NCBI GenBank assembly: GCA_018524725.1
Contig: JAEUWP010000174.1
Coordinates: forward strand, 62,001-126,000
Length of the DNA stretch: 64,000 nucleotides
Source of the DNA: Podaxis mareebaensis
Lineage: Eukaryota > Basidiomycota > Agaricomycetes > Agaricales > Agaricaceae
Reading direction: 5' to 3'
Positions 37,201-62,509 of this stretch are shown piece after piece; position 1 is the stretch's first letter; every line of letters starts with the position of its first letter. A program made the translations under genes and the position numbers. A model generated the notes under the pieces. It searched no databases. It was not told where the DNA came from and saw nothing but the letters and a program-made list of their open reading frames with translations.

Positions 37201-39169
37201 TTGTTCTCCCGCTCGTTCTCATGCCTGTCGACGCCAGCTTGGAGAAGTTGTTGGTATACGTTTTGAAGCTTTTCGTCTGCTTCTGCTTCGAGTTTTCTGG
37301 TTCACCAGTCGTCAGTGTGATAAGTAGGTGTACAGTACGGGGAGGGACATACGCAATCCTCGCTCGTTCGGATTGTTGTTTGTCCAGATCTGCTTTTGTC
37401 CGAGCCAATTCCGCTTGAAGAGACGAAATTTTCTCTTCCAACTATACCAGGGCTTTTAGCACAGACTCAACAGCGCTGAATTTGAGGAGACGCGCCTCGT
37501 CCTTCTTCGTATTCTGGGTTGCTAGATCTTCACTTCGCGTCCTGATTTTCTCTTCGAGGCCCTGTTGTCTTTCAGCCAGCTGGGTGAGGGCTCGATTGGC
37601 CGTCTTTTCATCCCGAGTAAGAACTTCGAGTTTCTGTCGTTCATCAACCGCAAGAACGCTCGCACGTGCTTTCCTGAGGCCAATCAATTGAAGTGGGTTT
37701 TAGGTGAACGGAAAAGGTTGGCTCACAATTCCTGGTACTCTTCCAAACTCTCTTCGCTTAGAGCAATGTTCTGCTGGGATGCGCGCCGTTGCTCCTCTAC
37801 CGATTATGAACCATGAACAGAAGCCCGACTTGGACAGGAGTTAGGACGCACCTTGAGCCCTATCAGCAGCCCGTTTTACACTAGCCAACTCCTTCTCGTA
37901 TGCCTCAACTTTCTGACTCAAGCTTTGTTCCGTTTTCGCGGACTCGTCCTTGGACTTGAGAGCGTTGCTAAGTTTACGCGTCGCATGCGTGATTTGGGCT
38001 TCGAGTGCGACCAGGTCAGGTTTCTATAGCGCGAATTCACGAGTCAGCAAGAAACAATTGGAGAGTAAGGGACAGACCTTGGCGTCGAGCGTTTTCTCTG
38101 CTTTCTTGATCGTTTTCTCTTTTTGCATGACTGCTGCTCGGGCTCTGGCCTGATCTGCTCGTGCCTCGTCGAGGGCTTTGTCATGCGCGCGTTGTTCGTC
38201 GCGAAGTCCTTTTAGTTCTTTGTTCTTCTTGACGATCGTCTCTGAATTACTTGTGATAGCTTCCTCGATGTGGAATAGTTTGAATAGGATGCGTTGAAGG
38301 ATGAGGTGGTCCTAAAATCCCATTAAGACCAGACTGAGCCAATGAATGGACGAGGAGCACACCCGTTTTTGAACAAGAGCCTCAAACCTCTCCGCCTCCC
38401 CCTTCTGTTCCTTGTACTGCTTAATCTCGCCTGCGATACCTCGACGTTTATTGAAGTTGAAGGTTGCATTTTCTGTTGCTCGGTCCTGAGCCTCTTTGGC
38501 CTTCTCATACTCCCCTGCAAGCTCGAGCGACCCACTGATCTGTTCAATGAGGCGGGAGAGTTCGCGTGGGGATTGTGAGGCAACAGCTTCGACGTCGCCC
38601 TGGAACACGAGGAAATTCTTGGCTTTGACAAGGATGTTGTGCGAGACGAGAGCGGCATTGTATGCAGAGTAGGTAACGACTTTGTCGTTCAGTTTGTATT
38701 CAGATGCACCTGTGGTTGAGATCCTGGATGAACATTAGCGTCTTGACTTAGTAGGAGGTAGTAACGACATACGTTCGTTGAAAACGCCATTCCTTCCCTT
38801 CCCCATCCATAAACACGGCAAGGACCCATGCCTTCTTTGCGGTCCCTTCCCCTTCTTGTTCCTCTTCCTCGTCGCCATCCTGAGCCACAGACCCGTCCTC
38901 GTTGATCTTTGCGAGCCTTCGTCCACGATATACGAGGTCTTTAAGTTGCGAACTTCGTAGTTGAGCACTCTTGACACCCAATACGAAGGAAATAGCATCC
39001 ATGAGATTGGATTTACCCGCTCCATTGGGTCCAATTACAGATGTAAAATTCTTAAATGGGCCAATAGTCTGGTGTCCCCTGCAGTATGGTTAGCGGATGG
39101 TTCTGCAGAGCTTCCAGAGACTTACCTGTAGGACTTGAAGTCGCATACCTCTATGCGCACGAGCGGCAT
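34290..39169 (-). CDS. SMC1: Cohesin subunit SMC1 (Psm1)
   Basis: A core ATPase of the cohesin ring in the nucleus. The start (39,169) encodes [15 protein letters not shown], followed after an intron by [20 protein letters not shown] with the Walker [10 protein letters not shown]. Diagnostic SMC1 blocks follow: [40 protein letters not shown] and [16 protein letters not shown]. Coiled coils fill 35,050-36,450 and 37,200-38,330. The hinge is near 36,600-37,120 ([20 protein letters not shown]). The C-terminal head has the ABC signature [16 protein letters not shown] and Walker [17 protein letters not shown]. Many short introns. The last codons depend on a final intron: read through, the stop is at 34,319; spliced, at 34,290. 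No damage seen. It targets the same sister-chromatid process as separase and condensin in this window. Confidence 0.93.
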
Positions 39170-39331
39170 TTGGTTTGTTTTTGTCCAAGTCGCGTCAATA
39201 ATCCAACGCGATCACGCTCATGTTATTGCTTAGTCATCAGTCTATTCTTAGCCATCACCGCGTGTAGATGCGCGAGAACACAAGTACTTAAACGTTCAAC
39301 ACTCACAACATATCCAACTTATTCTTATACC
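39170..39331. promoter_or_regulatory. Shared upstream region of SMC1 and a NACHT gene
   Basis: Only 162 bases separate the divergent starts of SMC1 (-) and the zinc-knuckle NACHT gene (+). No distinct motif is certain. This marks the border between the housekeeping block and the accessory block. Confidence 0.4.
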
Positions 39332-40420
39332 ATGAACTCCCATTTTAACAACGCCCACGATTTTGTCTTAAACAATCCCACTATATATAATGTCACAATG
39401 TCCACACATCATATGGATGACGATGGTGCGCAACTTCATCGGCTTGCTCTGTCCTCTGCCCACTTTCCTGTATCAGTCCTCAGGCTCATAGCCCCATATG
39501 TCATTGAAGGGGCGGAGTTTGACTCATCTGATCGTGACCCTCCTCCTCGATGTCACCCAGGAACGAGAGAGACCCTCCTGAACCTCATTTTCGTCTGGCG
39601 TCACAACGAGAATCGCCCTAAACGCCTCCTGTGGCTCAAAGGCTGTGCTGGCGTCGGCAAAACCGCGATTATCCAAACCCTTGCCGAAGCCGAAGCCGAA
39701 GGCGCAGGCAACTTGGGGGCAACATTCTTCTTCTCTCGCAGAAATCAACGTTACGCCTTCAATGGTGTCCTCGCAACAATCGCATACCAACTCGCAGTCA
39801 AGGATCCCAACTATCGAGACTACGTCGCCCAACGTATAGCCGCCGATCCCCGCCTCTTCAAGAAATCGATGCCTGCGCAGTTTGAGCTGTTTATTACGCA
39901 GCCTTTTGGTCGGTTGATGCTCTGGCAAGGTCCAGATGCCTATTCAATCTACCTCGATGGCCTCGACGAGTGGTCTGGCGAAAGGGTTCAATGCCAGCTC
40001 ATTGAGCTCATTAGTTCGTTCACGCTCCAGTATCCTCAAGCGCTCCTCATCTGGATCGTCGCCAGCCGCCCAGAAGTCCACCTCCAAGCCCTCTTCGCAC
40101 GCGACGACATTATTCCCAGTTATTGGACCATAACGATCCCGACAAACCGGCATGGGGTACATCAAGGCGTTGACAGAGCCCTCCGCATCGAGCGCGTCAA
40201 CAATGGTACCCACGCCGAAGGTTCGTGCCTTCAATGTGGCGGGGTTGGACACTGGGCTATGGATTGCCCCAACTTCAGGTGTCGAGGATGTCAGCGCACA
40301 GCCCCGGGTCACTATGCCTATGACTGCAACCAGTATCAATGCCCCCACTGTCGTGTTTTCCGACCCGGCCACAGAGCATTATATTGCGAACAGAACCCAC
40401 GAAACAACCCACCATTCTGA
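39332..40420 (+). CDS. Short NACHT NTPase with three C-terminal CCHC zinc knuckles
   Basis: An intronless 362-residue protein. It opens MNSHFNNAHDFVLNNPTIYN, a short leader common before Agaricomycete NACHT domains. Residues 104-111 are the Walker A GCAGVGKT, 204-213 the Walker B region YSIYLDGLDE and 241-246 a sensor-like WIVASR. The NACHT core then stops near residue 270, without the usual winged helix and repeat array. In their place are three zinc knuckles: C299-C312 (CX2CX4HX4C), C317-C332 and C337-C352 (both CX2CX6HX4C), each with the typical GH. NACHT proteins are signal-transducing NTPases used in fungal allorecognition and immunity; zinc knuckles usually bind single-stranded nucleic acid. 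A nucleic-acid sensor is therefore an attractive reading, but it is inference. The frame is intact, and a paralog at 44,767 keeps the same design. Confidence 0.8.
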   Translation: MNSHFNNAHDFVLNNPTIYNVTMSTHHMDDDGAQLHRLALSSAHFPVSVLRLIAPYVIEGAEFDSSDRDPPPRCHPGTRETLLNLIFVWRHNENRPKRLLWLKGCAGVGKTAIIQTLAEAEAEGAGNLGATFFFSRRNQRYAFNGVLATIAYQLAVKDPNYRDYVAQRIAADPRLFKKSMPAQFELFITQPFGRLMLWQGPDAYSIYLDGLDEWSGERVQCQLIELISSFTLQYPQALLIWIVASRPEVHLQALFARDDIIPSYWTITIPTNRHGVHQGVDRALRIERVNNGTHAEGSCLQCGGVGHWAMDCPNFRCRGCQRTAPGHYAYDCNQYQCPHCRVFRPGHRALYCEQNPRNNPPF

Positions 40421-42554: not shown

Positions 42555-43100
42555 ACTGTATCGCCCTTCCCCACTCTCCTGTATCAGTCCGCAGGGAACG
42601 AGGTTCTCCTGAACCCCATTAGCGCCGCAACGAGGATCGCCATAAACGCCTTTCATGGCTCAACGGCTGTGCTGTGCTAATGCCAGCAAAACCATGGTCA
42701 TCCTAACCATCGCCAAGACAGAAGCAGAAGACACAAGGAGACTGGGACCTTTTTTCGTTCCGTTAACCCATTTTGCGAGTATGATGGGGCATGAAATCGT
42801 CTTGGGGGCTCGCTTGGCTTGAAGAAAGGCTTATCCGCAATTTCTGGTCCTGCCTCACTTTTCCTTCTTTGGCTAGCAAAGCTCAGAAAAGGAATACCAA
42901 AGTAGCCGCTATGGTACAAAGTATATCCAATCGAACGCCTTTAGGTATAAGAATACCGTGTGATCCCTGTTAGGTTAGACGGCTGTGGCTTGAGGTCTAC
43001 GAGCTATTAGACAATGAGGAAGCTCAATGCCGGCTCATCGAACCCATCAGCCCATTCACACTCCAGTATCCCCAGGCATCTTTCGCGCATGTTGCTCGTG
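42555..43100 (+). pseudogene. Shattered third copy of the NACHT gene
   Basis: Nucleotide similarity to the intact NACHT gene is visible by eye in two pieces. Piece one (about 42,563-42,750) matches the stretch from CTGTATCAGTCC through the Walker A region (GGCTCAACGGCTGTGCTG) to the following EAEA codons. Piece two (about 43,009-43,100) matches the part encoding QCQLIELISSFTLQYPQA. Frameshifts and stops break it, and a 260-base segment that is not NACHT sits between the pieces. The zinc-knuckle end is absent. Confidence 0.6.
42750..43010 (+). repeat. Short dispersed repeat, copy A
   Basis: About 261 bases that recur at 46,331-46,593 in the same orientation. Shared blocks include GTTAACCCATTTTGCGAGTA, TTTTCCTTCTTTGGCTAG and GGTTAGACGGCTGTGGCTTG. 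It separates the two halves of a NACHT relic, so it may be an insertion. Exact ends are uncertain because both edges resemble old NACHT sequence. Confidence 0.65.
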
Positions 43101-44766: not shown

Positions 44767-45846
44767 TCATGGATCATTTCGTGGGTTCTGATCGCAGTAC
44801 TTCGCTCTGTGGCCGGGTTGAAAGACACCACAGTGGGGACATCGGTACTGACGGCAGTCATAGGCGTAGTGACCCGGAGCGGTGCGATTACAGCCTAGAC
44901 ACCTGAAGCTTGGGCAATCCAAAGCCCAGTGTCCGACGCCACCACATTCAAGACATTGGTCTTCACTATGGGTGTCACTATTATTGCGCCTGGTACGAAG
45001 GTCCTGCTCGGCATCTTGACGTGCTTCGTGCGAGTTTGTAGGAATGGTGATCGGATAGCAACTAGAAGCGATGTCATCTCGTGCGAAGAGGGCTTGGAGG
45101 TGGCTCTTGCGACGGCTGGCGATAATCCAGACAAGGGGCGCCTTCGGGTATCGAAGCGTAAATGAACTGATGAGCTCGACAAGCTGGCATTGAGCTGCTT
45201 CATCGTGACATTCGTCTAGGCCATCCAAATATATTGACCAGGAATCGGGTCCATTGCAAAGCATCTTTTCACCAAAAGGCTGCGTGATGAACAGCTTAAA
45301 TTGTGCGGACACGATTTTCTCAAAGAGGAGGGGGTCTTCGGCCACGCGTCCGGCAATGTAGGCTTGGTAGGTTGAGTCCTTGGCCGCAAGTCGGTATGCG
45401 ATTGTTGCAAGGACGCCATTGAGGTCATCACGTCCGTCTCGGCGGGAGAAAAAGAACGTTGCGCCGAGTTTGCCTGCCCCTTCGGCTTCGGCTTCAGCGA
45501 GTGTTTGGATAATAGCAGATTTGCCAACACGAGCGGAACCGTTGAGCCATAGGAGGCGTTCGGTTCGGTTCTCATTGTGACGCCAGGCGAGGATGATATT
45601 CATGAGCTCCTGATTTGTTCCTGGAAGACATCGGGGAGGAGGATCGCGATCAGAGGAGTCGAACTCTGCGCCCTGAATAACATATGGGAGCATGAAGTGG
45701 AGGGCTAGTACGGGAATGTGAGCAGATTACGCTATGAACCGATCAGGTTGCATACTGTTGGGGACCATATAATAATAGTTGTTGACATCGTATATTGTAG
45801 GGATGTTGAAGACAAAATGGTGGGCATGGCTGAAGTGACCGCTCAT
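44767..45846 (-). pseudogene. Second NACHT/zinc-knuckle copy with one in-frame stop
   Basis: This copy is inverted relative to the one at 39,332 and has almost the same length. From 45,846 the frame reads MSGHFSHAHHFVFNIPTIYD, then meets TAA at 45,727-45,729, and resumes in the same frame as SAHIPVLALHF and MLPYVIQGAEFDSSDRDPP. The 308 codons from the Met at 45,693 are fully open. Walker A is GSARVGKS, Walker B IYLDGLDE, and all three zinc knuckles keep every Cys and His. The stop replaces one Ser codon before the NACHT core, so translation from the internal Met would still give the complete NTPase and knuckles. Many differences from copy one are at third codon positions, which argues for past or present selection on the protein. 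Labelled pseudogene because of the stop; a shortened functional gene is possible. Confidence 0.7.
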
Positions 45847-46330
45847 GATACAAGGGGCTAAACCAGATAATTTGTCAATGTCCGCTACGTCCCCGCGAAT
45901 TAACATACTCGTGGGAAAGACGCCCTCATGGTAATGGCTAAGAATAGATTGCTGACAAAGCAGTGACACGGTTGGGACTGCATGCTCTTCCTCGAAAGCG
46001 CCTGAGGCACCCACCCTAACACGCACATGTTCACCTCACCTCCATCAACTACAAAAAAAACTCATGCCCTCACTTATACCGCTAACCTTTTACCCCAGGC
46101 TCGTGAAATCATATCCCACTCGGACTGTGCCCCAAACGTGTTGCTGACAGCAGTCAAACCGGGTGAGATGATGTCGCTTTTGTTTAGGTTTGTCCATGGA
46201 ACTTCAGGCGGGCGGGATTGAGAAGTTGAGAGGGGTTGCTGCTGGAATGAGGTTTAGTATTCGGCCTTTGGGGAGGATGCGAGGGAAGGGTTATTTTACA
46301 TGGGAGTTTGTGGTAATATAGTAGGGTCAA
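45847..46330. other. Upstream flank of the second NACHT copy
   Basis: The NACHT copy-two frame stays open upstream to 46,026 on the - strand without similarity to copy one. A short A-run lies near 46,053. No separate gene is supported. Confidence 0.35.
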
Positions 46331-46593
46331 CTTTTTTTTTCGCTCTGTTAACCCATTTTGCGAGTACTTATGGGCTATGAAGTCGTCTTGGGTTCGCTTG
46401 AAGAAATAGGTTTATCCGCAATGTCTGGTACCGCCTTACTTTTCCTTCTTTGGCTAGGAAAGCTCATAGAAAGGTAATACCAAAGTAATCGCTATGGTAC
46501 AAAGCATATCCAATTGAACGCCCCTAGTTACAAGAATCAGGCGTAGTTCCCCGTAGGTTAGACGGCTGTGGCTTGGGGTCTGTGAGCTGTTAG
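46331..46593 (+). repeat. Short dispersed repeat, copy B
   Basis: Second copy of the 260-base repeat at 42,750-43,010. It is preceded by a run of nine T and followed by a run of about eleven A. The A-run at the right end recalls a retroposed tail, but copy A lacks it. It lies just past the 3' end of the GTPase-kinase gene. Confidence 0.65.
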
Positions 46594-46621
46594 AAAAAAA
46601 AAAACCAAGCGGATGCTGAGA

Positions 46622-49600
46622 TTAGTTTGTTCCCCGAACGCAAAGAAAATCACTCACCTCGCGCAGGATCATCACGACTTGTTCGAGCTCGACTTTGTTT
46701 GGGACCTCCTCTGTCGGGTTCAGAAGGGTCGAATCACTCTCTGGGCTCGTTGGAGTTTCTGGTCTGTCATCTCGGATATCCAGCTTCCCGAAATGATCTT
46801 GGATGTCCCGAGATGTAGGTCGATCCCCCGGTGCATACCTCCAACAGCGCTCCATCAAAGCCCATATCTGATCATCAATCTCATCCCAGTCATCATGACC
46901 TGGTTCCGGCCGTTGAGGGATTTCTTTTTTGTGTAGAGCAATTATTACTGGAGGGTCTGAGTCATATTGGCAAAATGGAATCCTCCGGGATAGCACCTGC
47001 AAAATTGTCACTCGGTTAGCAGTGAAAGGGCAAGAAGGGTGCCCATACCTCGTAGCATAGACAACCAAATGACCAGATATCCCATGGCTTTGTCGGTCGC
47101 TTCGACTGCTCTTCACCCAGCGATTCTGGGGCTGTCCAGTGCCTCGTACCTCCAATAAGTGATGAAGTATGCTCATGCCCCGCAGTGGCCGTTATGTGGG
47201 ATATTCCGAAGTCCGCGATTAACGCCCGTCCTTCGTCTGAAATCAATACATTTTCCTGCGAAAGACTCCTTGAATAACAGCCTCATACAACATAAAGAAT
47301 CTGTTCTGACCCCTTTAAGATCACTGTGGACGATGTTCAAATCATGCAGGTACGCCAGGCCATCGATGACGTCAGAGAGCTGAGGATCACTCAGCGTAAC
47401 GATCACAAGTAATGCTAACGTAACACCGTCCTCACCAGAGGCATCCGCGACTTTTGTGGGAGTTTTCTTGCGTACTTGCGAAGTGTTCCATTGCTCATCC
47501 ATGGAGAAACAAGGCAGATCTTTGATACCCCGCCGGCCAGGTATACTCCATAAAATGGCAAAATATTACGGTGTGACAGATGAGCCCAGAGCGTCAGTTC
47601 CTTGATATATGCCTGCAAACACTCCTTCAATAGAGACGTAACAGTGTAGGATGGTGGGACCTACGCATAGGGTTTTGTTAGTTTTGTTATTATGGCGGCC
47701 GTGTTTGGGAATCTTGACGCAGACAGGCCGACCCTGGTGCTGTCCTCTGTGCACGTCCGCGAAGCCTCCTGCTGCTATAGGTTCAGGATCGTACTGTACG
47801 TCGTTCAGTGCATGGCACTGAGGGTAAACTCGGGAAGATGTCGCGAGTTTGCAAAGCATAACCAGAATGCGGTTGCCTTCACTGGTCGTGGGCAGGTTTT
47901 CTCCTTGACGGAGGATCTTGAACAATAATGTCTAAGAATCCGAGGCAAGCGGATAATTATGTGAGGACGTACTGTACTTAAGGAATCAGCCACGGTTTGA
48001 GCATTCCTACGATCCATCCCAGATAACAATCTATCGACTTTCTGGGGAGGATTGCCTATGATCTTTGATATCAAAAGGCACAAGTCTTGCATGCCAGTGA
48101 CACCTAGATCCGACGATTTCTTTGGTGCTTCTTTCATCTGTCCCGGGTCATTCTCCTGCCTTTCCACAATGGTTTCAGTGATCCCCTGCGGTTGCTGCAC
48201 AGCAGAGGCAGTAGCCAAGTTGATAGGTATCTGTCGGTGTAACGAGTGATTCACGGTTGTGACACCTGGTCCACAAGGGAACTACCTACCGCTAAATTGC
48301 TTAGGGCGGACTCCATTACATTATTACAATCAATGGTAGCTCGGATATCATCCGGATCGAGCGTAAGCCGGTGCGATGAGGGGGTCAGTTTCAACTTCTG
48401 CGCAATTCGCTCTATCTTCTCCAGTTGCCTAGCGTATAGGTGAGAGCTGGCGGGTCTGGGCTGGGCCATGGGCCACGTACCTGCAAAGTGACTCCATCGC
48501 ACCATTAACTGCCTTGGGATAATGCTCTTGCGTCAGCCGGTCCCGGTCACAAATATCACCAATGAACCGGCTGACATTGACTATCAAGTCGACAAGGGAG
48601 CGGTCTACGTTACTTATTTCCTGCAATCACCTTTAGCAGCGATTTCTTTATAAACAGGCATCCAACCCACCTTTAATATCTCCGCTATTCGTAATGCCAC
48701 TCCGATGCCATTTACAAGGCCAGGTGCGGTGATATCAGTGACAGAAGAAAGGGCAAGCTTCAGTGCCCGAATCGCGCACGTAGGGCCACTTGTGGATAGG
48801 CCGGCATCGGGTCCAACAGGAGCATCGATTTGGGAATTCGCGTTAGGGATGTCGCGGGCAACGTTATGCGGAAGTAAAGCTTCAGGTGGACTTGATTGAA
48901 CCAGTTCCACGGCGATCATGGCAGTCCGCGGCGGAATATTACAGTCCCTGGGTGGAGGCGGTTTGTCAGGGGGTTGAACTGAGTTCAGGTCGCTCCTGGG
49001 GGGAGATTGTTGTTCCTCAATCCCCTCCGATTCAACGCCCGCATTCGCCTTCGGAGGTTTTGTCTCCTCACAACTCCTGCTGTCGACATTACTCAATCCC
49101 ACAAGTGTTGCGGTTTTCTTCTTGGGTCGGGAGATCAGGCGTCCGACTACCTGGACACTGCGACGAAACCAAGCAAACAGGGACAGGACTGCTGATGTTT
49201 CGTGCAAAGGTTTATTTTGATCGACCATCTCCTTTTGGATTTGCAGAGGCTTTGGAGGCATAGGCAATGCGCGAATGATATCCCATGCCGAAGACTTTTC
49301 ATTTTGAAATCGCAGCATCTGCGACCCCCCGTCAAGAAAACACTTCCAAAAGTCATTGCGGAGTCCTTCCTCGTTTCTGATACCCGAAACATCGTCGTCC
49401 TTGAGCTGATTCCACTGTGTCGTTACAAGGATGACATTAGAGAGCGCACCCTCGCCACAGATGTTTTCGAACATGTTCAGGTTCTGCATAAACGAGTTCG
49501 TCATGCGGGGGTGCGTAATCGGATGAAGGTACAAGATCCCGGATAGTTTCACGCCGCCCTGGTACCTATAAAGCCCGTGAGTAGGTGGATCGGGAGTGAA

Positions 49601-50163
49601 GAGACTAAGCGGACGTTTTTTCAAGCCAACGTGCTATCTCTTCCAAAATGGCCAAATCACTCCTGAAAGTATCGTCGAAACCTGGTGTATCCACCAAAAC
49701 AAATTCGCGTCCATCTATTGGATCCTGGCATGGAACGACTTGCAATGTTTGAGTACAAGAAATCAACCCGTCGCCGACCAGGACATCGTCCGCGCCGGTC
49801 GCAGTTTTTACAAGCTATTTTGGCAATAAGGAACTGGACAGCGAACCCAAAGACTTTATGAAACTTACCGTGCTCTTGCCAGCACCCGTAGGCCCCATTA
49901 CACTAGATGCACGAAGTCCACGCAATCAGCCTCGCAGATTCCCATAGGAATAATTCCAAGCACTCACGCGACGATTCTTGGTACGCTTCCAGGGGGATTG
50001 TCACTATTTCTCTGAGTAGTTGGGGCTCCGCGACGACGCTCGCGACCATTTGCCTTTTTGGAGCTCCTTCTCGAAGAACTGGCGGAAGGCGGAGGTCGAG
50101 AAGACTGGGTAATCGGTCAGTCACGGAAATTACCCGTTTCGGCGAAAGCACACGAACCTGCAT
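46622..50163 (-). CDS. Fusion protein: AIG1-like GTPase, MLKL/HeLo-like helical bundle, protein kinase
   Basis: About ten exons. The start at 50,163 is a model: MQ spliced over a 54-base intron into a basic Ser/Arg-rich leader. G domain (about 49,250-49,960): PRIVAVMGPTGAGKST (G1), FVLVDTPGFDDTFRSD (G3) and VILVTTQWNQL at the G4 position, as in AIG1/GIMAP-like P-loop proteins. A Pro-rich linker follows. The helical region (about 48,250-48,790) reads IRALKLALSSVTDITAPGLV, GVALRIAEILK, DLIVNVSRFIGDICDR, LEKIERIAQKL and NVMESALSNLAV, like the MLKL N-terminal four-helix bundle found in many basidiomycete proteins. Kinase (46,830-47,840): glycine loop IAAGGFADVHRG, Lys in VCVKIPK, catalytic loop IVHSDLKGEN (HSD, so non-RD), DFG and WTAPESL. 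All catalytic residues are present. Known bundles of this type permeabilise membranes in cell death; that role here is inference. Confidence 0.75.
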
Positions 50164-53039: not shown

Positions 53040-55860
53040 CGTAGTGACCGTGGCAGAACTGTTCTAGGATAGTTCTGCCGGCAGATCGGCAGATCGGCAA
53101 CTGCCAGGGGTGGCAGAACGTGGCGGAATCCTCAACGAAACATTTTCATGATTTTTATCTAACTATAGTTGTAGTACGCTCTCTTCGACGTTGTTCCTTC
53201 ACAGACCAACACTGCCTTCAGAAAGAAGACCATCAATACTCCACACTCTGCTGCTGCTTGCCTCACCTACAAACAGTGCGCCGCTCTCCCTCTCAATGGC
53301 CGGTTCCACTCCCTCAGCAAACTTTGCATACTCCTCGAAGTCATAAACCTCCCCTGCAAGTACCTCTGCTCCATCACACAAGTCGGAGTGCTCAGATACT
53401 CTGACCTCAAGTTCCCTAAACGCCTCGTCAAGCTCCTCCTCCGTGATTGACTCCAGGCCTCCATTGTTGTCATTCTCGGCTGAGCTACTAGCCAACGGAC
53501 CAGTCCAGGTAAAATGTTCTTCGAGTTCTTGAGTGAGACCTATGTTGATCCCAACTTCATTAGGTGTGTGCATGTGTGCATGGGTTCGACGGAGTGATTT
53601 TCCAGAAGACTGGAGATGTTTAGCTAGATGGTAGCTGTAGTTTCCGCGTAATTTGCCAAGAGACTCGAACGTAGAAAGGGCCAAATTACACCTCCTTGCT
53701 GTTTGGACCCCACCCAGTTGAGAAAAGAGTCGCTCGACATCAGCTGCATGGGGAACAATCGAGAGGATCTTGATGGAAAAGATCTTCAATGGATGGTCCC
53801 TGGAGCTCACTGGAAGCCCCTCCCACCACTCAAGACCATGACGATCACCTCCTTCAAAAGGTGGTTGACAACGGTGATATAATTTGAGGTCACTGACAAG
53901 CTTTCGAGCCCTGTCTTCACTCCACCTCCATTGTTGTGCTATTCCAAGTGCCGTAGTAACCATGAATGCAAATGAGTGACCACTTGCTGCTTGAGAGATT
54001 GCAAGACGACGTGCGAGTGGGTGAAGAAAGAGGGCGAGTGAATGAATAGGTGTGTTCATAGCATGAAAACGGCGATTGAATACAGATTTTGCATGCATCC
54101 AAAAGCCTACACTGTCCTCCTCTGAGTCAAAAGGCAGCCTGATCATATCTCGAGCACAGCGAATGAGCTCAAGCATACAGTCAGCTAAAGTGACATCGCG
54201 AGATTCAAGGTTTCCAATGGCATCGACAAGGGGTTTAACAACTTTGATGAGTTGATTGAGACGAGCCCAGAATGTTGCGTCTGAAAGCACAGTTATGTAG
54301 ATATCACTTGGAATGGCAGAGAGGCCATTTGTCTTCTTCTGCGCATCTGGCCGTATACAAATCTTGGAAAGAGGTACCCTGACCATGCAATTGGGTGTTA
54401 ACACAAGGTTCACAAATAGTTATACAACTCATACCTGTGTGACTTAATACTGAGGGCTTGAAGAATAAGAACATACCACCGGGTCTCGCAATTCTTTTGT
54501 AAAGTTTGAGTGACTCCAGCCGCTTTGGCTTCTTGTTTCAGCTGCCCTCCCCAGTAGTGTGATCCATTAAAGAACATCACGATTCTGTTGCACTTCTTGA
54601 TGACGTCTTTCATTTCCGGAAATGATGTAACCTCGCCGATCATGTTGTTGATGGCATGAAGAATGCATGGTAGTGTCTATACATAATAAGAAAATCAAGC
54701 CTTTGGATGTCAATGAATCAACCAACACTTACAAGAACCCAGTAATAGGTTTGCTGAAACTGAGACCAGAACAATTTCATCACAGTTGGGTTGTCTGTGA
54801 CTAGGGCAATTATCCTGGTTCCATCTTCAAGCTCCATTGAGCGCAATGCTCTGATAACGGCAGCATGCAAGTTTCCAGCTGTAGCACGTTCACCAGTCAT
54901 GTCCTCAAGGCTGAGAACAACGGGAAATTGATTGACTTCTGAGACCATGGCACCATACAGACTATGTTGTAAGCGATCCTCCCATCCATCAAAGAGCAAT
55001 GTAAGTCAATCCCGAGCATGTAGCCACTGTATATCTTCCTCTTTGACACAGGCAACCTCAGTGTCCATTACTGAGTGCGAAAGCACATAACAGCTTGCAG
55101 GTGCATATGATGGGCAGATTTCGTTCAGCCATAACTTGAAGAAGTGATTATTGGCAGCAATAAAAGGGATATTCGCATGGACAAAGAACCTTATTTAAGA
55201 TTAGGACTTTGTTATCAGCCAAGAATACCTAATTTGTCTCTCACCGAAACATCTTGATATTTGCACTAAGTTGCTGGCCTTCCGTAAGTGCTGTATCAAT
55301 GTACCCCATCAGTCCTTCAGTCTTGTGCTTCTTCGATCCATCAATTATGATAGAATCATCAGCAATTGATTGCAAAGCAGGGTCCCCTTGTGTCAAAACC
55401 ATGATAGAACTTGAGTTTGCATCCCCTTTTGCTGCAAGAAGTGTACGGGCTGTCCTTCGGACTTCTGAAGGTGCATTTGGACAGAGTTTGGTGTCAATTA
55501 TGTGATTGTAAAGGTGGTTGTCATGGCCCTCAATGCAAGAACCTGGGCTGTTCTCATCTGTACAGTGTTTACACTTCCAGAAGTAATGGCCAGATTTGTT
55601 TCCAAGAGCCTCGAGATGTGTGAAATTGTGAGTGATGAAAGTCGGAGGAGATCTTCCACCTGGCATTGGAAGAGGTCACGAAATACAGTACAATTTTTTT
55701 TTACTCATGGGCACAAACCAAGGAAAGGCGGCAGCAGTTTGGCAGATTTCCCACGGTTCTGCCCTAGTTTTGCTGGTAATGTCATTGATCTGCCTGGCAT
55801 TTGCCATTCTGCCAGCCAGCCATGGCAGAATGGTGGAGCTCTGCCATCAACATTACCCAC
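53040..55860 (-). mobile_element. hAT-family DNA transposon, decayed
   Basis: The element is defined by the transposase and by TGGCAGAA-like motifs in both orientations near its ends (53,049-53,125 and 55,735-55,855). The left GGCAGAACGTGG and the right GGCAGAACCGTGG, read on the opposite strand, look like diverged inverted terminal or subterminal repeats. I could not fix the exact termini or an 8-base target duplication. Confidence 0.65.
53199..55666 (-). pseudogene. hAT transposase with an in-frame stop
   Basis: Cut-and-paste transposase. The N-terminal exon (55,241-55,666) has a BED-like finger (YFWKCKHC with HDNHLYNHI). A middle part (54,410-55,200) reads ANIPFIAANNHFFKLWLNEI, SLYGAMVSEVNQFPVVLSLE, IIALVTDNPTVMKLFW and CNRIVMFFNGSHYW, a DUF659/hAT catalytic layout. 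The large last exon (53,199-54,413) ends in the hAT dimerisation domain (IVPHAADVERLFSQLGGVQT). A TGA at 55,006-55,008 interrupts the frame between WLHARD and LTLLFDGWED, where Arg is expected, suggesting CGA to TGA. Otherwise the frames join well through short introns, so the copy is recently inactive rather than ancient. Confidence 0.78.
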
Positions 55861-57690
55861 ACGGATATGAACATTTTTCCTCACAACACTTCGGAAGTGA
55901 ACAAAACTTCGCCGTGATAAGCTGTGATAATGAAATGTTCATCCATTGTCGCTTACCTCACACAGAACGCTGACGGCCCACTGCCATGGCGCCTTCTGGC
56001 AGCATCGTTTGGCTGTAGGTGACATGTTACCATATTAGCTAGGTATCAGGGCCCTGGGCGTGGACCTTAATAAGACAGATAATACTTTCATTCAAGTTCG
56101 TTCTTACTTATTGTCTATGAGTATGTACATCTGGAAATGAAGTACTGCAACCACATGTCTGATACCTCCCCACCCAACCTTCCCTCACTCTATACTCCCT
56201 TAGCCCCGTGACAGTTAATGTCACCACCACTGACACAGGTGTCTCACCCATCAGCGCGAGTCTCTCCCTCAAATACCCCATACCACCTTACACAACCAAC
56301 ACCAACAACATCGAAATCAATTACTATTACCCTACCACTGGTGTTAAAGAGTAATGCTCTTCCGACTATTCACCATGTCTATGAATGCAAATAGAATACC
56401 ACTCCTTATGGATGCCTGAAACAGAATTCTTGTAATATGCACTGAACCTGTACCATAGTGGTTGTGCAGAATGTGGACGATGTGCTATGGCTGATTAACC
56501 ATCAGGTGGGTTTGCCTGGGCACACGACACAGCAAGAAGGGCATTGATTCCAGGGTTCCACTGACAGGGTTCGGGGTACCTGGCCTCTATGAATGGTTTA
56601 GCAGAAAAGGTCATAGACAAGGTGTGCCTTGGCTTTCTCATGCCCCTCACTAGATGCTCAGTTGACTGTACAGTCCCAATCAAACCACCACGTTGCATCT
56701 ACCCAATGCAACAAAACATTTCTATATTTCATGGTCAACACGAACAGCCTTACCCAAGATATCCTCACGCAGGTGGATGAGTGGAGTGAGTAGTACTATA
56801 CGAATGAGGTGGGCAAGGAGGAGAAACCTGACATCAAGTATTTGTTGTCCAATATCACCAAGTCATTCCATGCCCATCCTCTCAGGAGTGTGAATATCGA
56901 TGCTTTCTTGGTGAATTTGTATTATACATTCGGGCAGGAGGCCACTGGACTCAATTGTTTAGGCAATGGGGGTACTCAGGTATGTTGCCTTCCATCCACC
57001 CACCTCGCACATGCCAAGTTATTTTTGGATTCTGGGTGCTAATTCAATGCAATCTGATTCAGTTGGCTGTGTGCGCCCATGGTTTGGCCTTATTGCTGTT
57101 GGATTTGAGGAATGTGGCAACAAAGAACCACTCACAAAAGGTGCCATCAAACACCTGCTCGACACACCTATGCCAGGGTCAGCAAAGACGCTGAAGATCC
57201 ACAAGCCAAAGCTGGTGTTGCGACATGGCTCAAGCACATAGAAGACTGTGAGACTGAGACATTGCAGATAAGAAAGTGCAATGTGAGCTCCATGTAAAGA
57301 AGTATGGGAGGAGTATGATCAATTAGACGAGGATTTGAGGTGTATATGAGAGAGTATGTGGTTTTGAAGGAGAGTATGGATAAGGCATTGAATCGATCCA
57401 ATGAGATGGGGCTGATTGAGGAGAGTAACCACACAAACTTAGCTAATCTGGAGATGTGGAATTTGAAGGAAGCTGGGATTAGGAAACAAAGTGTGTTGAA
57501 ATGTCTGCTTTATATTGAATACATCATTTCTGATATCTTGTTGGATGTAAATAGTATTTCGATTAACATGACTTGTCATATTGACAACGCAATCAAATGT
57601 GACTGGAAATATGAATTCATTGGGATAAGCAGGTCACCTTGTCACAGCAAGACCTTATGCCTTGCTTGGTTCTACAGGGGATGAGTACAT
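55861..57690 (+). pseudogene. Degenerate coding relic of unknown family
   Basis: Several + strand frames look coding but are broken by stops and shifts: TVNVTTTDTGVSPISASLSL near 56,210, KPDIKYLLSNITKSFHAHPL then SVNIDAFLVNLYYTFGQEAT near 56,830-56,950, GCVRPWFGLIAVGFEECGNK near 57,070, and YMREYVVLKESMDKALNRSN near 57,345. They may come from one older gene. I do not recognise the family. The stretch looks TG/CA-rich and CpG-poor. Confidence 0.3.
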
Positions 57691-58793
57691 GAATGGGTAC
57701 TGGCATTTTGGAGTAGATTATACACGAGGTGACACAGGTGACACATGGGTAGATGCAGGAGAATGAATAGAAATACGCTGCAATTGAGAATCCTGAGGCC
57801 ACAGGTCGGGAGATTGAGACTACAGGGATTAAGATTCGGGATATAACTGCGAGGAGGCATGTATCATGTGTCATTTCGTCCCTGTGGTACTGAAAAACAT
57901 GTTCTTATAGGACTAATAGTTATGCCTTCAACAGAGACATATGCTCTCTTTCAAAAGGCAACACAGGCCTCCACCTCCAATATGCACCTGTCCGTGCCTC
58001 TGTCAGCCACAAAACCTGAAAACTCATGCCTGCTCCAAACACTGACTTGAATCCATGCAGACCCCTTATCTACATGCCTACAGTCCTAGGAAGCCATATT
58101 GCTTCTTGAAGAATACACGGATGTGCTATTCACAGTGCATAAGCTGAATTGGTTGGTGATATTTCTATTCAGCTTGTGTAGGCATGGGATTTCAGCATGA
58201 GGGATATAGTCATTGTGATGGGGGAGAAACATGTGCAGAAGGCGAGGGTGAAGATGATTTTGTTTGAGAAGGTGAGAGAAGTTATTGCTGGTAGGGTGAG
58301 CTTGTCGAGTAATTGGACCCTTGGAAAAGGTGCAAGGAGGGATTACCTTAGTGGTTGCAATAATTTTGTGGGATGTTGTATTTGGCATTCTCCTTTCTTT
58401 TGCTTTATTCTTTCATTGGTGTGAGTTCACTGAATGGACTGTATGTTTCGACAATTGACTTGTTCCATTAAAACAGAGATAAAGAAGGAACACGCACTCC
58501 AAGATAAACCAATTCAGAGGTTCCCCCACAGTTCTTGCAAATCCTCTCTTCCACCAGGGTCACAATGAAAGGGATGCAGAAGGTGGTGGATAGGGTCAGG
58601 AGGACACATCTCATCTCATTAGGTTGTGGAAACATTTCGAAAAGGATACATGATACCCAAAAAAGATATTGCAATGCATCACTGTTGCTTGATTTACCTG
58701 AATCCATGTCAAACTCCAGACCCCTTCCAGTTGTTGCTAGTTGGGACACTCCTATGTCAAACACTCACTTCTTTTCATTATCATGCTGGCCTC
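57691..58793. other. 1.1 kb of unassigned CpG-poor DNA
   Basis: Short frames only. It separates the unknown relic from the kinase relic. No supported feature. Confidence 0.35.
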
Positions 58794-60917
58794 TCACATG
58801 ACAACACACAACAGTGATTCTGGATTCTTATCATCCCTTTTCACTGCATTCAGCACAGGAAACACCTCCACCAGGAACCCCAGCAGACAAACAGGGGAAG
58901 ACCTCAATAGGAGTGATGAAGTATAGTTCTGTGCCCCAGAGGCCATTGTGATGTGTGACAAGCCAAAGTCTGTAATTAATGCTTGCCCTTCATCCGAGAT
59001 CAACACATTTACCTGCCAACAAGGTCTTTAGATCAAGCTTCCTTGACATGAAGAATTTGTACATACACCTTTAAGATTGCTATGCATGATATTCAACTGG
59101 TACAGGTACACTAGGCCATTGATGATGCCACAAAGCTGAGGGTGTCCTGTCACAATTACAGGTAATGTTGGAACAATATTGTCCTCACCAGGGGCATCCG
59201 AGACTTTTGTGGGAGATTCTTTGCATACTTGTCTAGAGTTCCATTACTCATCCATGGGGAAATGGGGTAGATCTTGGAAGTCTCGCCAGCCAGGTGTACT
59301 CCATAAAATGGCAAAATGTTGCAGTGTGACAAATGAGCCCAGAGCACCACCTCCTTGAAATGTGCCTATAGACCAGCTGTTAACAGAGATGAAGTAGAGT
59401 TAGGTGATAGGACCTATGGCTAGGGTTCTGTCATCCAGAAGGTAGTTTCTGGTAACTTTAATACAGACAATCTTATTCTTGTACTGCCCCTTGTGCACAT
59501 CCACGAAGCTGCCTCCTGCTACAGGCCTAGTGTCATATTGTATGTCTTCAAGTACACAGTGTTTGGGGCAAACTCAGGCAGATGCTGCAATTTTGCAAAG
59601 TATAACCAGAATATAACTTCTTTTGTCAGTCACAAGGATGCTGCCTTGACTTAGGACCTTGAGTAAACAATGTGTCAAAAATATCCAAACAGTGGGGAGT
59701 TGCCCAAGAATGTACTATACTAAGGAAATCAGCTATGAGTTGAGCACCTTCATGGTCCATCTTGGCTATCAACCTATTGGCTTCCTGGGAGGAATTGCCT
59801 AAAATCTGGGATATCCATGTATGCACTGTGCCATCTGGACTTGGTGCTTTCTTGCCAAGAATGTCTCTCAGTTTATTGCTGGATGGGGATGACTTGCTGG
59901 ATGGTAATGGCTTGCTGGACTACAGTAGTAATGGTGATGGCACTGGTGGGGACAACAGCACCAGTGATAGTGACAGTGATGGTGACAGCAATGGCTCCCT
60001 GCTGGGGTGCAACGACTCCTCACCTGGGGGTGACAGCTCATTAGGAGTGTGGACAGAGCCTATGTCAGGCTTATGAAGAGACTTTGTGGCTCTCTTCCTC
60101 CAAAGTCAGAGGATTAGGCATTTAATGCAATGAATGATATAATATAACCAAGGGAATGGAGACCAGGTTGCCACTTTTGCACTGACTGTCTCCTGATGCA
60201 ATTTTGCAGGTCTTGAACCAGTAAGCAGCATATTGATAATGCTCCATGTGGAAGGAGGTGTATTGTGGAATCACAACATTTGTGATCCCCCATCAAGAAG
60301 TGGCTTCCAATAATTGTTGTGGAGTTTCTCCTCTTTCTTGATGCCAGAGTCATTACCATCTTCGAGTTGGTCCCAGTGTGTTGTTATACAGATGATGTTG
60401 TGGAGTGGGTTCTTGCCACAGAGCTTTTCAAGCATATTCAGGTACTGCTCAAGTGAATGCAGGGTATGATCATCCATAATGCAATGGAGATACAGGATCC
60501 CAGATAGTTTCCCACTGCCCTGATACCTGTTGTACCTCATAAGCAAGCAGACAGCGAAATGAGTAACTAGGTAAACATTTGTTGAAGCCAACCCTCTATC
60601 TCTTCTAGAATTTCCATGTCACTCCTGCCAATATCACTAAAACCAGGTGTGTCCATGAAAACATAGTCATGTCTCTGTTCCAGATCCTTGCATGGGAAGG
60701 TCTGCAATACTTGGGTGTGAGCATCAACCTGACTCTGTGAGACAGTCACAGTCCTGATAAACTGGTTTGGCAATAAGACACTGGACAATTTGGTCCAGGG
60801 GATTTGTGAAAACCCACTGAGCTTTTTCCAGCACCAATAAGTCCCAAAACACTGGATATGCAAGCCCCACAAACTATCAGCCTCACTAGTTCTGATAGGA
60901 GAACTCCAAGTACTCAC
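58794..60917 (-). pseudogene. Decayed relative B of the GTPase-MLKL-kinase gene
   Basis: Same order and orientation as the intact gene at 46,622-50,163. GTPase part: Walker A GLIGAGKSS near 60,830, VFMDTPGFSDIGRSD, KLSGILYLHCIMDD and ICITTHWDQLEDG. At 60,271-60,273 a TGA stands where the intact gene has CGA (after GGSQML). A weak match to the segment before the kinase, with MDHEGAQLIADFLS, is near 59,720-59,830. Kinase part (58,794-59,660): EVVLWAHLSHCNILPFYGVH, WMSNGTLDKYAKNLPQKSRM, then IMHSNLKG, so the catalytic Asp is Asn. It ends after LITDFGLSHITMAS and lacks the C-lobe. Clearly non-functional as a kinase. Confidence 0.7.
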
Positions 60918-61149
60918 GCAATGATTATTGGTCTACCCTCAGGTAGGTCATCAGTATTATGCTGAGAGGTAGTCTGAGTGTCATGGTAGCAATAAGTTCT
61001 CTTTCTCAGATGTGAAGAAATCACTCATGTCAAGCAAGGCCGTAGCAACTCATTCAGGGTCAGCTTCATGTGGGATATCTTTTGTTGTGCCCTGAGGTGT
61101 CAAATGGCTCCTGGGCCTTGCTGGTGTATTTGACCTATCACCACAGACA

Positions 61150-62509
61150 TCCAGCTCCTTGAAATGATCATGAATGTCCTGAGATGTTGGTCAATCTTCT
61201 GGTGCATATGTCCAGCAGCTCTTCATCAAATTCCACATTTGATCATCAATTTCATCCATGTCATCATGACCTGGTTCTGGTCATTGAGGTATTTGCTTGT
61301 TCCATAGAGCAAAGAGTACTTCATACCCCAGTCGATATTGATAGAATGGAATCCTACATGAAAGCACCTTGGAGTGACCAGTCAGTTGATGCTAAGGAGC
61401 CAAAAATATGACCACACCTCATAGCATAAACAGCTGAATGACCAAATATCCCACACCTTTGTCAGCCACATGTAACCATCTTTGTCCAGAGATTCTGGTG
61501 CCGCCCAATGCATGGAGCCTCTGACCAGTGGTGAAGTACACTTCTCCCCTTCACTGGCTGTTGAGATGTATGATACCCCAAAATCCATGATCAATGCTTG
61601 CCCTTGATCTGAGATCAACATGTTTCGCTGCCAACAAGTCTTTGAGTCAATAGCTTCTTTGAAAAAATGAAGAATTTGCACATACACCTTTAAGATCCCC
61701 ATGCATGATGTTCAATTGGTGCAGGTATGCCAGGCCATTGAGGACATCCAAAAGCTGTTGGTCATTGTCCCAATTACAGGTAATGGTGGCATAACATTCT
61801 CCTTACCAGAGGCATCTGAGACTTTTGTGGGAGCTTCTGTGCATACTCACTCAGTGATCCATTGCTCATCCATGGAGAAACAGGGCAGATTTTTGAAGCA
61901 CCACCAGTCAGGTGTACTCCATAGAACAGCAAGATATTGGGGTGTGACAAATGGGCCCAGAGTGCCAGCCGCTTGATGTGCACCTGTAAACAGGCTTTTA
62001 GTAGGGTGCAGTAGTGAGGTGGTAGGACCTACACCCAGGCTTTCACCATCATGATAATAGTCTTTGATGACTTTGATGCAAACAACCCTATTCTTGTGCC
62101 ACCCTTTATGGATATCTGTGAAGCCACCTCTCATTGTGGGCTCAAGGTCATACTGTACATCTTTGAGTACATAGTGCTGGGGGTAAACCTGGGCAGATGT
62201 TGCAAATTTGCAAAGCATAGCCAGATGGTAGTTTCCCTCATCAGTTACAACAAAGCCTTCTTATCTCAGGTCCTTAAAAGGGATAATATATCAGAATCAC
62301 AATCAAGTGGACAGCTGCCTGAAGACATACTTTACTTAAGAGATTGACAATGGATTGAGCCTTGTCATGGCTCATTCCAGTGATCAATCTACCGAATTCC
62401 TGCATTAATGCCCCTGGCCTATCAACCTCTAGAATGCAGTTTCCTTCATTGGTTGTGAGAATGCCTTTTTCTTCGCTAAGGGTCTTAGGTGATGGAACAT
62501 TAGGGTTTC
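61150..62509 (-). pseudogene. Decayed relative C, kinase part only
   Basis: Kinase domain related to the intact gene: MRGGFTDIHKG (glycine loop), VVCIKVIKDY (Lys), WAHLSHPNILLFYGVHLTGG, IMHGDLKG (HGD), ALIMDFGVS (DFG) and HWAAPESLDKDG (APE). The catalytic residues survive, but the C-lobe has TGA at 61,281-61,283 (intact gene CGG) and at 61,191-61,193 (intact gene CGA in GDRPTS). Upstream of the kinase only part of the segment with LITGMSHDKAQSIVNLLS is left, and an LTR begins at 62,510, cutting off any GTPase part. It lies directly upstream of relative B in the same orientation. Confidence 0.68.

What the first reader, a model, noticed from the sequence alone, without database searches (positions are those of the whole stretch)
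46622..50163. GTPase + MLKL-like bundle + non-RD kinase in one protein
The frame joins an AIG1/GIMAP-like G domain (GPTGAGKST, DTPGF), a helical region resembling the MLKL/HeLo-like N-terminal bundle, and a kinase with complete active-site motifs. MLKL-type proteins in animals and plants put a killer bundle next to a kinase or pseudokinase; here a GTPase is placed in front and the kinase looks catalytically competent. This could be a self-contained fungal cell-death or allorecognition switch. Motifs are read directly; the bundle assignment and role are inferred from helix pattern and position.
Basis: partly seen in the sequence, partly recalled or inferred. Interest (0 to 1): 0.87.

Follow-up and report, generated by a model that had tools for sequence, protein, structure and literature searches.

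The report
Mushroom G-domain, helix-bundle and kinase fusion
A mushroom gene appears to join a nucleotide-binding switch, a helical module and a complete-looking protein kinase in one protein; it may be a defence or self-recognition switch, but whether the helical part is a cell-killing module is not shown.

Summary
The fusion is real at gene-model level. On the minus strand, 14 exons (50163..46524; 13 GT-AG introns of 49-71 nt) encode 971 aa: an AIG1/GIMAP/Toc34-type G domain, a linker, a ~140-residue helical module, a short "PRE" module found before this family's kinases, and a kinase with its catalytic residues (HSD, so non-RD). Both domain joints lie inside single exons.

The helical module is a conserved domain: one paralogue in the same genome (C301) and a Macrolepiota protein (P0099) carry G-linker-module without a kinase. 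Other relatives carry G-PRE-kinase without the module. This is a modular, expanded family; this gene is the only instance seen with all parts.

The MLKL/HeLo label is not established. No Pfam MLKL_N, HeLo or related profile matches, the AlphaFold model is poor (pLDDT 39), and the module is internal, not N-terminal. G4 NKxD is absent, so GTP specificity is unproven too. Fungal HELL-kinase fusions, wheat MLKL_NTD-kinase fusions and Roco GTPase-kinases are known; the three-way combination was not found in my searches. New variant of a known kind.

The parts
46524..50163 (-). whole gene model, 14 exons, 971 aa: exons 50163-50158, 50104-49968, 49902-49869, 49814-49615, 49565-48671, 48620-48481, 48428-48290, 48230-47973, 47916-47665, 47612-47436, 47379-47311, 47255-47049, 46996-46658, 46586-46524
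   Evidence: manual splicing, all GT-AG, introns 49-71 nt; intron 8 chosen by comparison with P0005 and P0017; last intron uncertain (stop at 46622 without it); the 6-nt first exon is the least certain
49192..49978 (-). AIG1/GIMAP/Toc34-type G domain (aa 45-251), three introns inside; G1 GPTGAGKST, G3 DTPGF; canonical G4 NKxD absent (VTTQW)
   Evidence: Pfam MMR_HSR1 5.5e-8 and AIG1 5.9e-6; best PDB sequence match of relative P0099 is GIMAP7 3zjc; fold of relative P0015 nearest Toc34, GIMAP2 and GIMAP7
48788..49191 (-). linker, charged and proline-rich (aa 252-385), same exon as the end of the G domain and the start of the helical module
   Evidence: 39% identical to the paralogue over 153 aligned codons of aa 252-404
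48203..48787 (-). helical module (aa ~386-527), three exon boundaries shared with the paralogue; MLKL-like only by helix pattern
   Evidence: 66 of 132 positions identical to C301:113.6-114.1 kb and 62 of 132 to P0099; no Pfam match and no convincing PDB sequence match
47808..48092 (-). PRE: short helical module (aa 564-640) that precedes many kinases of this family
   Evidence: window PRE, P0005 PRE or P0018 PRE matches P0001-P0015 and P0017-P0020 among the 27 proteins searched; three helices in the model of P0015 at block pLDDT 47-67
46775..47793 (-). protein kinase domain (aa 645-912), VCVK lysine, alpha-C IKEL glutamate, HSD, DFG, APE all present; non-RD
   Evidence: Pkinase 1.5e-42, PK_Tyr_Ser-Thr 2.9e-37; 58% to P0014 of Macrolepiota
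58901..62278 (-). locus 2: decayed PRE-kinase copy (about 62278-61018) and decayed G-PRE-kinase copy (about 60932-58901) of the same family, without the helical module
   Evidence: tblastn, blastn (69%, 69% and 65% DNA identity to parts of the gene), stops in the matched stretches and CpG observed/expected 0.08
44767..45726 (-). neighbouring open frame on the same strand: NPHP3_N/NACHT domain followed by CCHC zinc knuckles; an in-frame stop (45729-45727) separates it from an N-terminal stretch that reaches 46035, so it may be decayed; not shown to be linked in function
   Evidence: NPHP3_N 7.5e-18, NACHT 2.8e-6, zf-CCHC 3.7e-6; stop

Best explanation
One intact gene encodes a modular signalling protein of an expanded Agaricaceae family in which an AIG1/Toc34-type G domain is joined to different C-terminal output modules. 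SHOWN: gene model, the modules, exon-internal joints, a complete-looking kinase active site, the family's module shuffling, and conservation of the helical module. INFERRED: nucleotide-dependent dimerisation of the G domain (as in GIMAP7 and Toc34, recalled) brings copies together; the kinases phosphorylate in trans; the change is passed through PRE to the helical module, which then acts at a membrane or recruits partners as the output. The most likely setting is intracellular defence or non-self recognition. Working like MLKL (phospho-triggered release of a helical bundle) is the leading idea for the last step, but it is the least supported step.
For: Gene model and motifs; G domain and kinase profiles; the helical module found twice more without a kinase, C301:113.6-114.1 kb and P0099; G-PRE-kinase without the module in P0015 and at C301:48-50 kb and 51-54 kb; G-tree clade of 7 of 17 rows, support 100/100, mixing G-only, G-module, G-PRE and decayed G-PRE-kinase architectures; fold of the G domain of P0015 nearest Toc34 and GIMAP; dN below dS in G and module; at least 15 of 57 G loci have a same-strand kinase exon within 2.5 kb downstream (lower bound); a NACHT-containing frame next door.
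Against: No MLKL/HeLo profile match to the module in the 3 homologues scanned; poor model; module internal, near-neutral (16 K+R, 17 D+E) and, relative to its two homologues, with the conserved C-terminal stretch replaced. Only one genome shows all parts together. The neighbouring NACHT frame carries an in-frame stop. No expression, localisation or toxicity data. G4 motif absent, so nucleotide specificity is open.
Confidence: 0.4

Rival explanations
1. The helical module is an ordinary scaffold, dimerisation or autoinhibitory element in a GTPase-kinase signalling protein (a fungal analogue of Roco kinases); it kills nothing, and the output is phosphorylation of other proteins.
Against: Two relatives carry the module without a kinase, so it has a role of its own; the helix pattern (about 15, 39, 28 and 45 residues) is what I recall of basidiomycete MLKL-like domains.
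Confidence: 0.32
2. Two adjacent genes, G-linker-module and PRE-kinase, are read as one; the transcripts are separate.
For: Both halves exist apart: C301 paralogue and P0099 for the first half; P0018, which matches from PRE through the kinase with no G match, and the locus 2 copy at about 62278-61018 for the second.
Against: Exon 48230-47973 is one open frame holding both the tail of the module family (IPINLATA matching IRIGLAVA of the paralogue, same intron in front) and PRE. G-PRE-kinase fusions are found in relatives P0015 and P0005.
Confidence: 0.12
3. A recent by-product of recombination in a churning gene family, expressed weakly or not at all and on its way to decay, like locus 2 about nine kilobases away.
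For: Decayed relatives at 58.9-62.3 kb; a single instance of the full combination; the module's conserved C-terminal stretch is replaced here; more lineage-unique residues than in the two homologues.
Against: The 971 codons read without a stop and CpG observed/expected is 0.92 against 0.08 in locus 2; dN below dS in G and module.
Confidence: 0.13

Closest known systems
MLKL (animals) and plant MLKL / Pm13 (MLKL_NTD plus brace plus Ser/Thr kinase)
   Same: A helical module followed by a linking segment and a C-terminal kinase; Pm13's kinase also keeps all key catalytic residues (PMC10951266, passages).
   Different: A G domain stands in front; the module is internal; no sequence-profile match; MLKL itself has a pseudokinase.
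Fungal HeLo/HELL and basidiomycete MLKL-like (BaMLKL) effector domains
   Same: Similar host group; HELL domains joined to kinase/pseudokinase are mentioned in a 2025 review (PMC12881547, passages); hundreds of BaMLKL-type proteins separate from NLRs are reported (PMC9815663, passages).
   Different: The module here hits none of the HeLo, Helo_like_N, SesA or Goodbye profiles; CDD MLKL_NTD could not be run.
GIMAP/IAN and Toc34 AIG1-type G proteins
   Different: G4 place reads VTTxW instead of NKxD; fused to a kinase; several C-terminal partners. Rab-type proteins follow closely in Z (12.2 and 12.1).
Roco proteins (LRRK2)
   Same: GTPase plus kinase in one protein (recalled; LRRK2 listed).
   Different: Roc-COR pair; no COR match here; the G domain belongs to a different branch.
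Tandem PRE-kinase proteins P0001-P0013 (Leucocoprinus, Leucoagaricus; P0001 and P0013 unnamed)
   Same: Same PRE and kinase modules; HSDLKG found in the four checked, P0001, P0002, P0005 and P0013.
   Different: Two or three kinase units, no helical module match; among these a G match only in P0005.

Membership tests
AIG1/GIMAP/Toc34 G domain | P-loop G1 and DxxG G3 motifs | tested here: met
   GPTGAGKST, DTPGF
AIG1/GIMAP/Toc34 G domain | Pfam AIG1 curated score | tested here: inconclusive
   26.2 bits against 27, E 5.9e-6; MMR_HSR1 is over its own cut-off
AIG1/GIMAP/Toc34 G domain | fold closest to GIMAP/Toc34 among P-loop proteins | tested here: met
GTP-specific G protein | G4 NKxD guanine-specificity motif | tested here: not met
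   VTTQW, VTTNW, VTTHW or VSTMW at that place in 5 of 10 proteins checked; the search pattern missed the other 5, of which P0016, P0021, P0024 and P0005 show TTMW, TTMW, TTTW and TSGW in alignments
MLKL | MLKL_N (PF22215) or plant DUF1221 profile | tested here: not met
   no such hit up to E 10 for the window and C301 modules and for P0099; HMMER filters drop most matches above 0.1. The own-genome PF22215 search rings only elsewhere (C6, E 0.24)
MLKL | four-helix bundle fold with MLKL among structural neighbours | tested here: inconclusive
   model of P0099 has pLDDT 39; MLKL is not among the rows shown, generic bundles only
MLKL | C-terminal kinase or pseudokinase domain | tested here: met
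   Pkinase 1.5e-42, catalytic residues present
MLKL | killer bundle at the N terminus | tested here: not met
   385 residues precede it
MLKL | membrane permeabilisation / necrotic death | not testable with these tools
   bench assay needed
HeLo / HELL / Goodbye-like | HeLo, Helo_like_N, SesA or Goodbye Pfam profile | tested here: not met
   no such hit for the window protein, the two modules or P0099
BaMLKL (CDD cd21037 MLKL_NTD) | CDD MLKL_NTD match | not testable with these tools
   CDD is not among the libraries
catalytically competent protein kinase | kinase profile with intact VAIK lysine, HxD, DFG, APE | tested here: met
   activity itself not tested
TKL group of kinases | group placement by kinome tree or group profile | tested here: inconclusive
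   only structural neighbours of relative P0015: Src family, FGFR1, BTK, RIPK1 but also Aurora A and PfPK5
Roco (LRRK2-like) | COR domain next to the G domain | tested here: not met
   no COR hit in the Pfam scan up to E 1
NLR / STAND | NACHT or NB-ARC domain | tested here: not met
   no NACHT or NB-ARC row for this protein; the neighbouring frame has a NACHT match

The most novel reading that the evidence does not exclude
A lineage of AIG1/Toc34-type G proteins in mushrooms has taken the place that NACHT/NB-ARC ATPases hold in NLRs: the G domain is the switch, the C-terminal module (helical effector, kinase, or both) is swapped between paralogues, and this gene is a single-chain sensor, RIPK3-like kinase and MLKL-like executioner.
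Probability: 0.13. Interest if true: 0.82.

Novelty: new variant of a known kind. Interest (0 to 1): 0.48.

Why it matters
If the module proves to be a membrane-active bundle, one polypeptide would hold what animals split between RIPK3 and MLKL, with a GIMAP-like G domain as control. That would be a compact system for asking how phosphorylation releases a killer bundle. Even without that, the family (57 merged G loci in a 37-Mb genome, with swapped output modules) looks like an NLR-like repertoire in mushrooms that my paper searches did not find described, and a route into basidiomycete non-self recognition.

Tried and rejected
MLKL assignment by sequence: Pfam scans of the whole protein, of the two module sequences and of P0099, phmmer of the module against PDB (two unconvincing hits, E 0.089 haemoglobin and 1.6), and PF17111, PF22215 and PF17109 searches of the own genome (the PF17109 search rang nowhere, controls included, so it says nothing). 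All negative or uninformative. The L053 ORF found with PF17111 looks HeLo-like by eye and does not resemble this module by eye; not compared by profile.

Fold of the module: AlphaFold on P0099 with 4 rows failed (pLDDT 38.9). Its Foldseek and VIA-align matches are generic bundles in the module part; MLKL does not appear among the rows shown, which shows nothing. Alignments A1, A2 and A4 tried to place the window exons as rows; exon 6 was misplaced each time. A3, which was folded, has part of exon 7 misplaced.

First splice of intron 8 (41 nt) was replaced by a 56-nt intron because P0005 and P0017 lack the five extra residues. An alternative N-lobe splice that would remove the catalytic lysine was considered by eye and rejected: frames of the locus 2 copies suggest the same intron start.

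Homology search with the window module alone found nothing among 740 candidates; the C301 paralogue's module as query found P0099 and P0100 among 1877. Module HMM (built with P0099 in it) against the 100 fetched proteins: P0099 and P0100, then nothing under E 0.77; against 55 DNA sources: the 60 best rows, all that I printed, fall on the window gene or the C301 paralogue.

Papers: ten searches. In what I saw, the top of each listing (several searches had far more papers than listed) and passages of seven papers, none describes a G domain, MLKL-like domain and kinase in one protein. The library holds open-licence PMC papers only.

Full report
WHAT IS THERE. The window is G000:C122:62001-126000 of a 36.95-Mb genome in 429 contigs. 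On the minus strand I built a 14-exon model from 50163 to 46524, 971 aa, 13 introns of 49-71 nt, all GT-AG. The six-base first exon and the last intron are the least certain parts.

ONE GENE. The joint between the G domain and the helical module lies in the 895-nt exon 49565-48671, and the joint between the module and PRE in the 258-nt exon 48230-47973. The latter begins with IPINLATASA, which aligns with IRIGLAVAAQ of the paralogue and follows an intron at the same place, and runs on in the same frame into PRE. So the fusion does not depend on where introns were placed at the joints. Transcripts were not available.

THE HELICAL MODULE IS A CONSERVED DOMAIN. In the own genome it matches one other place, C301:113600-114099 (45% and 59% identity in two exons, E 3.7e-12 and 1.1e-5), behind a G domain and linker and with no kinase match in the 9.9-kb locus. 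In the protein database the window module found nothing, but the C301 module found P0099 of Macrolepiota fuliginosa (E 3.5e-59, 62% over 97%) and P0100, a fragment identical to the C301 protein where they overlap. P0099 is G-linker-module without a kinase. Identities over 132 positions: window-C301 66, window-P0099 62, C301-P0099 87. Module dN and dS between window and C301 are 0.41 and 1.28; for G 0.25 and 3.46, the latter near saturation. The window lineage carries more unique residues than the other two (34 against 9 and 13 in the module; 47 against 12 and 11 in G), as expected if it split before the other two parted, or if it evolved faster.

PRE. The short module in front of the kinase is matched, by the window's, P0005's or P0018's copy, in P0001-P0015 and P0017-P0020 of 27 proteins searched (P0014 only at its start, P0099 only weakly in its linker, E 0.008). 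It has no Pfam match. P0017 of Macrolepiota is G-linker-PRE with the kinase missing from the annotated protein.

A MODULAR FAMILY. The G search of the own genome gives 92 exon matches, merged by me from 61 of them into 57 loci, 21 of these on C301; at least 15 of 57 have a same-strand kinase exon within 2.5 kb downstream (selection of rows told under Tried and rejected). C301:48-50 kb and 51-54 kb are G-PRE-kinase without the module; C301:160.8 and 163.2 kb show G and a short linker only. Among the 25 best database hits, P0005, P0014 and P0015 have both G and kinase matches (P0014 is kinase first, G last). In a G-domain tree of 17 rows the window falls in a clade of 7 (100/100) that holds G-only, G-module, G-PRE and decayed G-PRE-kinase members; its inner order is mostly unresolved. 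So output modules are exchanged between close relatives. The window gene is the only instance seen with all parts.

SURROUNDINGS. Downstream on the same strand lies a NACHT/NPHP3_N frame with CCHC zinc knuckles, 44767-45726, separated by an in-frame stop from an N-terminal stretch that reaches to 46035; it may be decayed or spliced. A diverged inverted copy without that stop sits at 39.1-40.4 kb (72% over 1025 nt). NLR and effector genes lie side by side in some fungal systems (NWD2 next to het-S; PMC10197012, passage), so the neighbour is suggestive only. About 9 kb upstream of the gene, locus 2 holds two decayed copies of the family with stops in the matched stretches and CpG observed/expected 0.08 against 0.92 for the gene.

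MECHANISM, with what is shown and what is inferred. Shown: modules, catalytic residues, family shuffling, constraint. Inferred from family knowledge (recalled): G-domain dimerisation. Inferred: trans-phosphorylation and transmission through PRE to the helical module. Speculative: membrane attack. The scaffold rival is nearly as likely.

NOVELTY. Known already: fungal HELL domains joined to kinase/pseudokinase (PMC12881547, passages), Pm13 with MLKL_NTD and an active-looking kinase (PMC10951266, passages), Roco GTPase-kinases (recalled; LRRK2 seen), and many TKL kinases in Laccaria (PMC2838846, passages). Not found in what I saw of ten paper searches: a G domain, helical effector candidate and kinase in one fungal protein. 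Hence a new variant of a known kind, of moderate interest until the module is identified.

Noticed in passing
window 54000-62000, strongest 58000-62000: Extreme CpG depletion (observed/expected 0.06-0.15 per kb at 58-62 kb, 0.33-0.57 at 54-58 kb, 0.57 at 62-63 kb, 1.00 at 63-64 kb) with TpG/CpA excess over decayed kinase and G-domain copies; looks like methylation-driven decay of duplicated genes.
   Followed up: partly
window 39068-40420 (+) and 44767-46035 (-): Two inverted, 72% identical NPHP3_N/NACHT frames ending in CCHC-type zinc knuckles, an unusual C terminus for a NACHT protein; the minus-strand one has an in-frame stop. Their N-termini (NNPTIYNV, NIPTIYDV) resemble, from memory, short N-terminal motifs of agaricomycete NLRs.
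   Followed up: partly
G000 C301 29-217 kb: 21 merged G-domain loci on both strands with varying C-terminal modules; looks like an NLR-like gene cluster.
   Followed up: partly
proteins P0001-P0013 (Leucocoprinus, Leucoagaricus, two unnamed): Proteins of 974-1207 aa with two or three PRE-kinase units in a row; in P0001 and P0002 the earlier units lack HSD/DFG by eye. Several come from neighbouring gene numbers (D9756_002589 to 002615).
   Followed up: no
window 46335-46597 and 42750-43014: An 83% identical direct repeat of about 265 bp, one copy overlapping the 3' end of the fusion gene.
   Followed up: no
L053 (G000 C282:97434-97814): Open frame with a weak PF17111 match (24.7 bits, cut-off 27.2), a candidate HeLo-like protein of this genome.
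   Followed up: no
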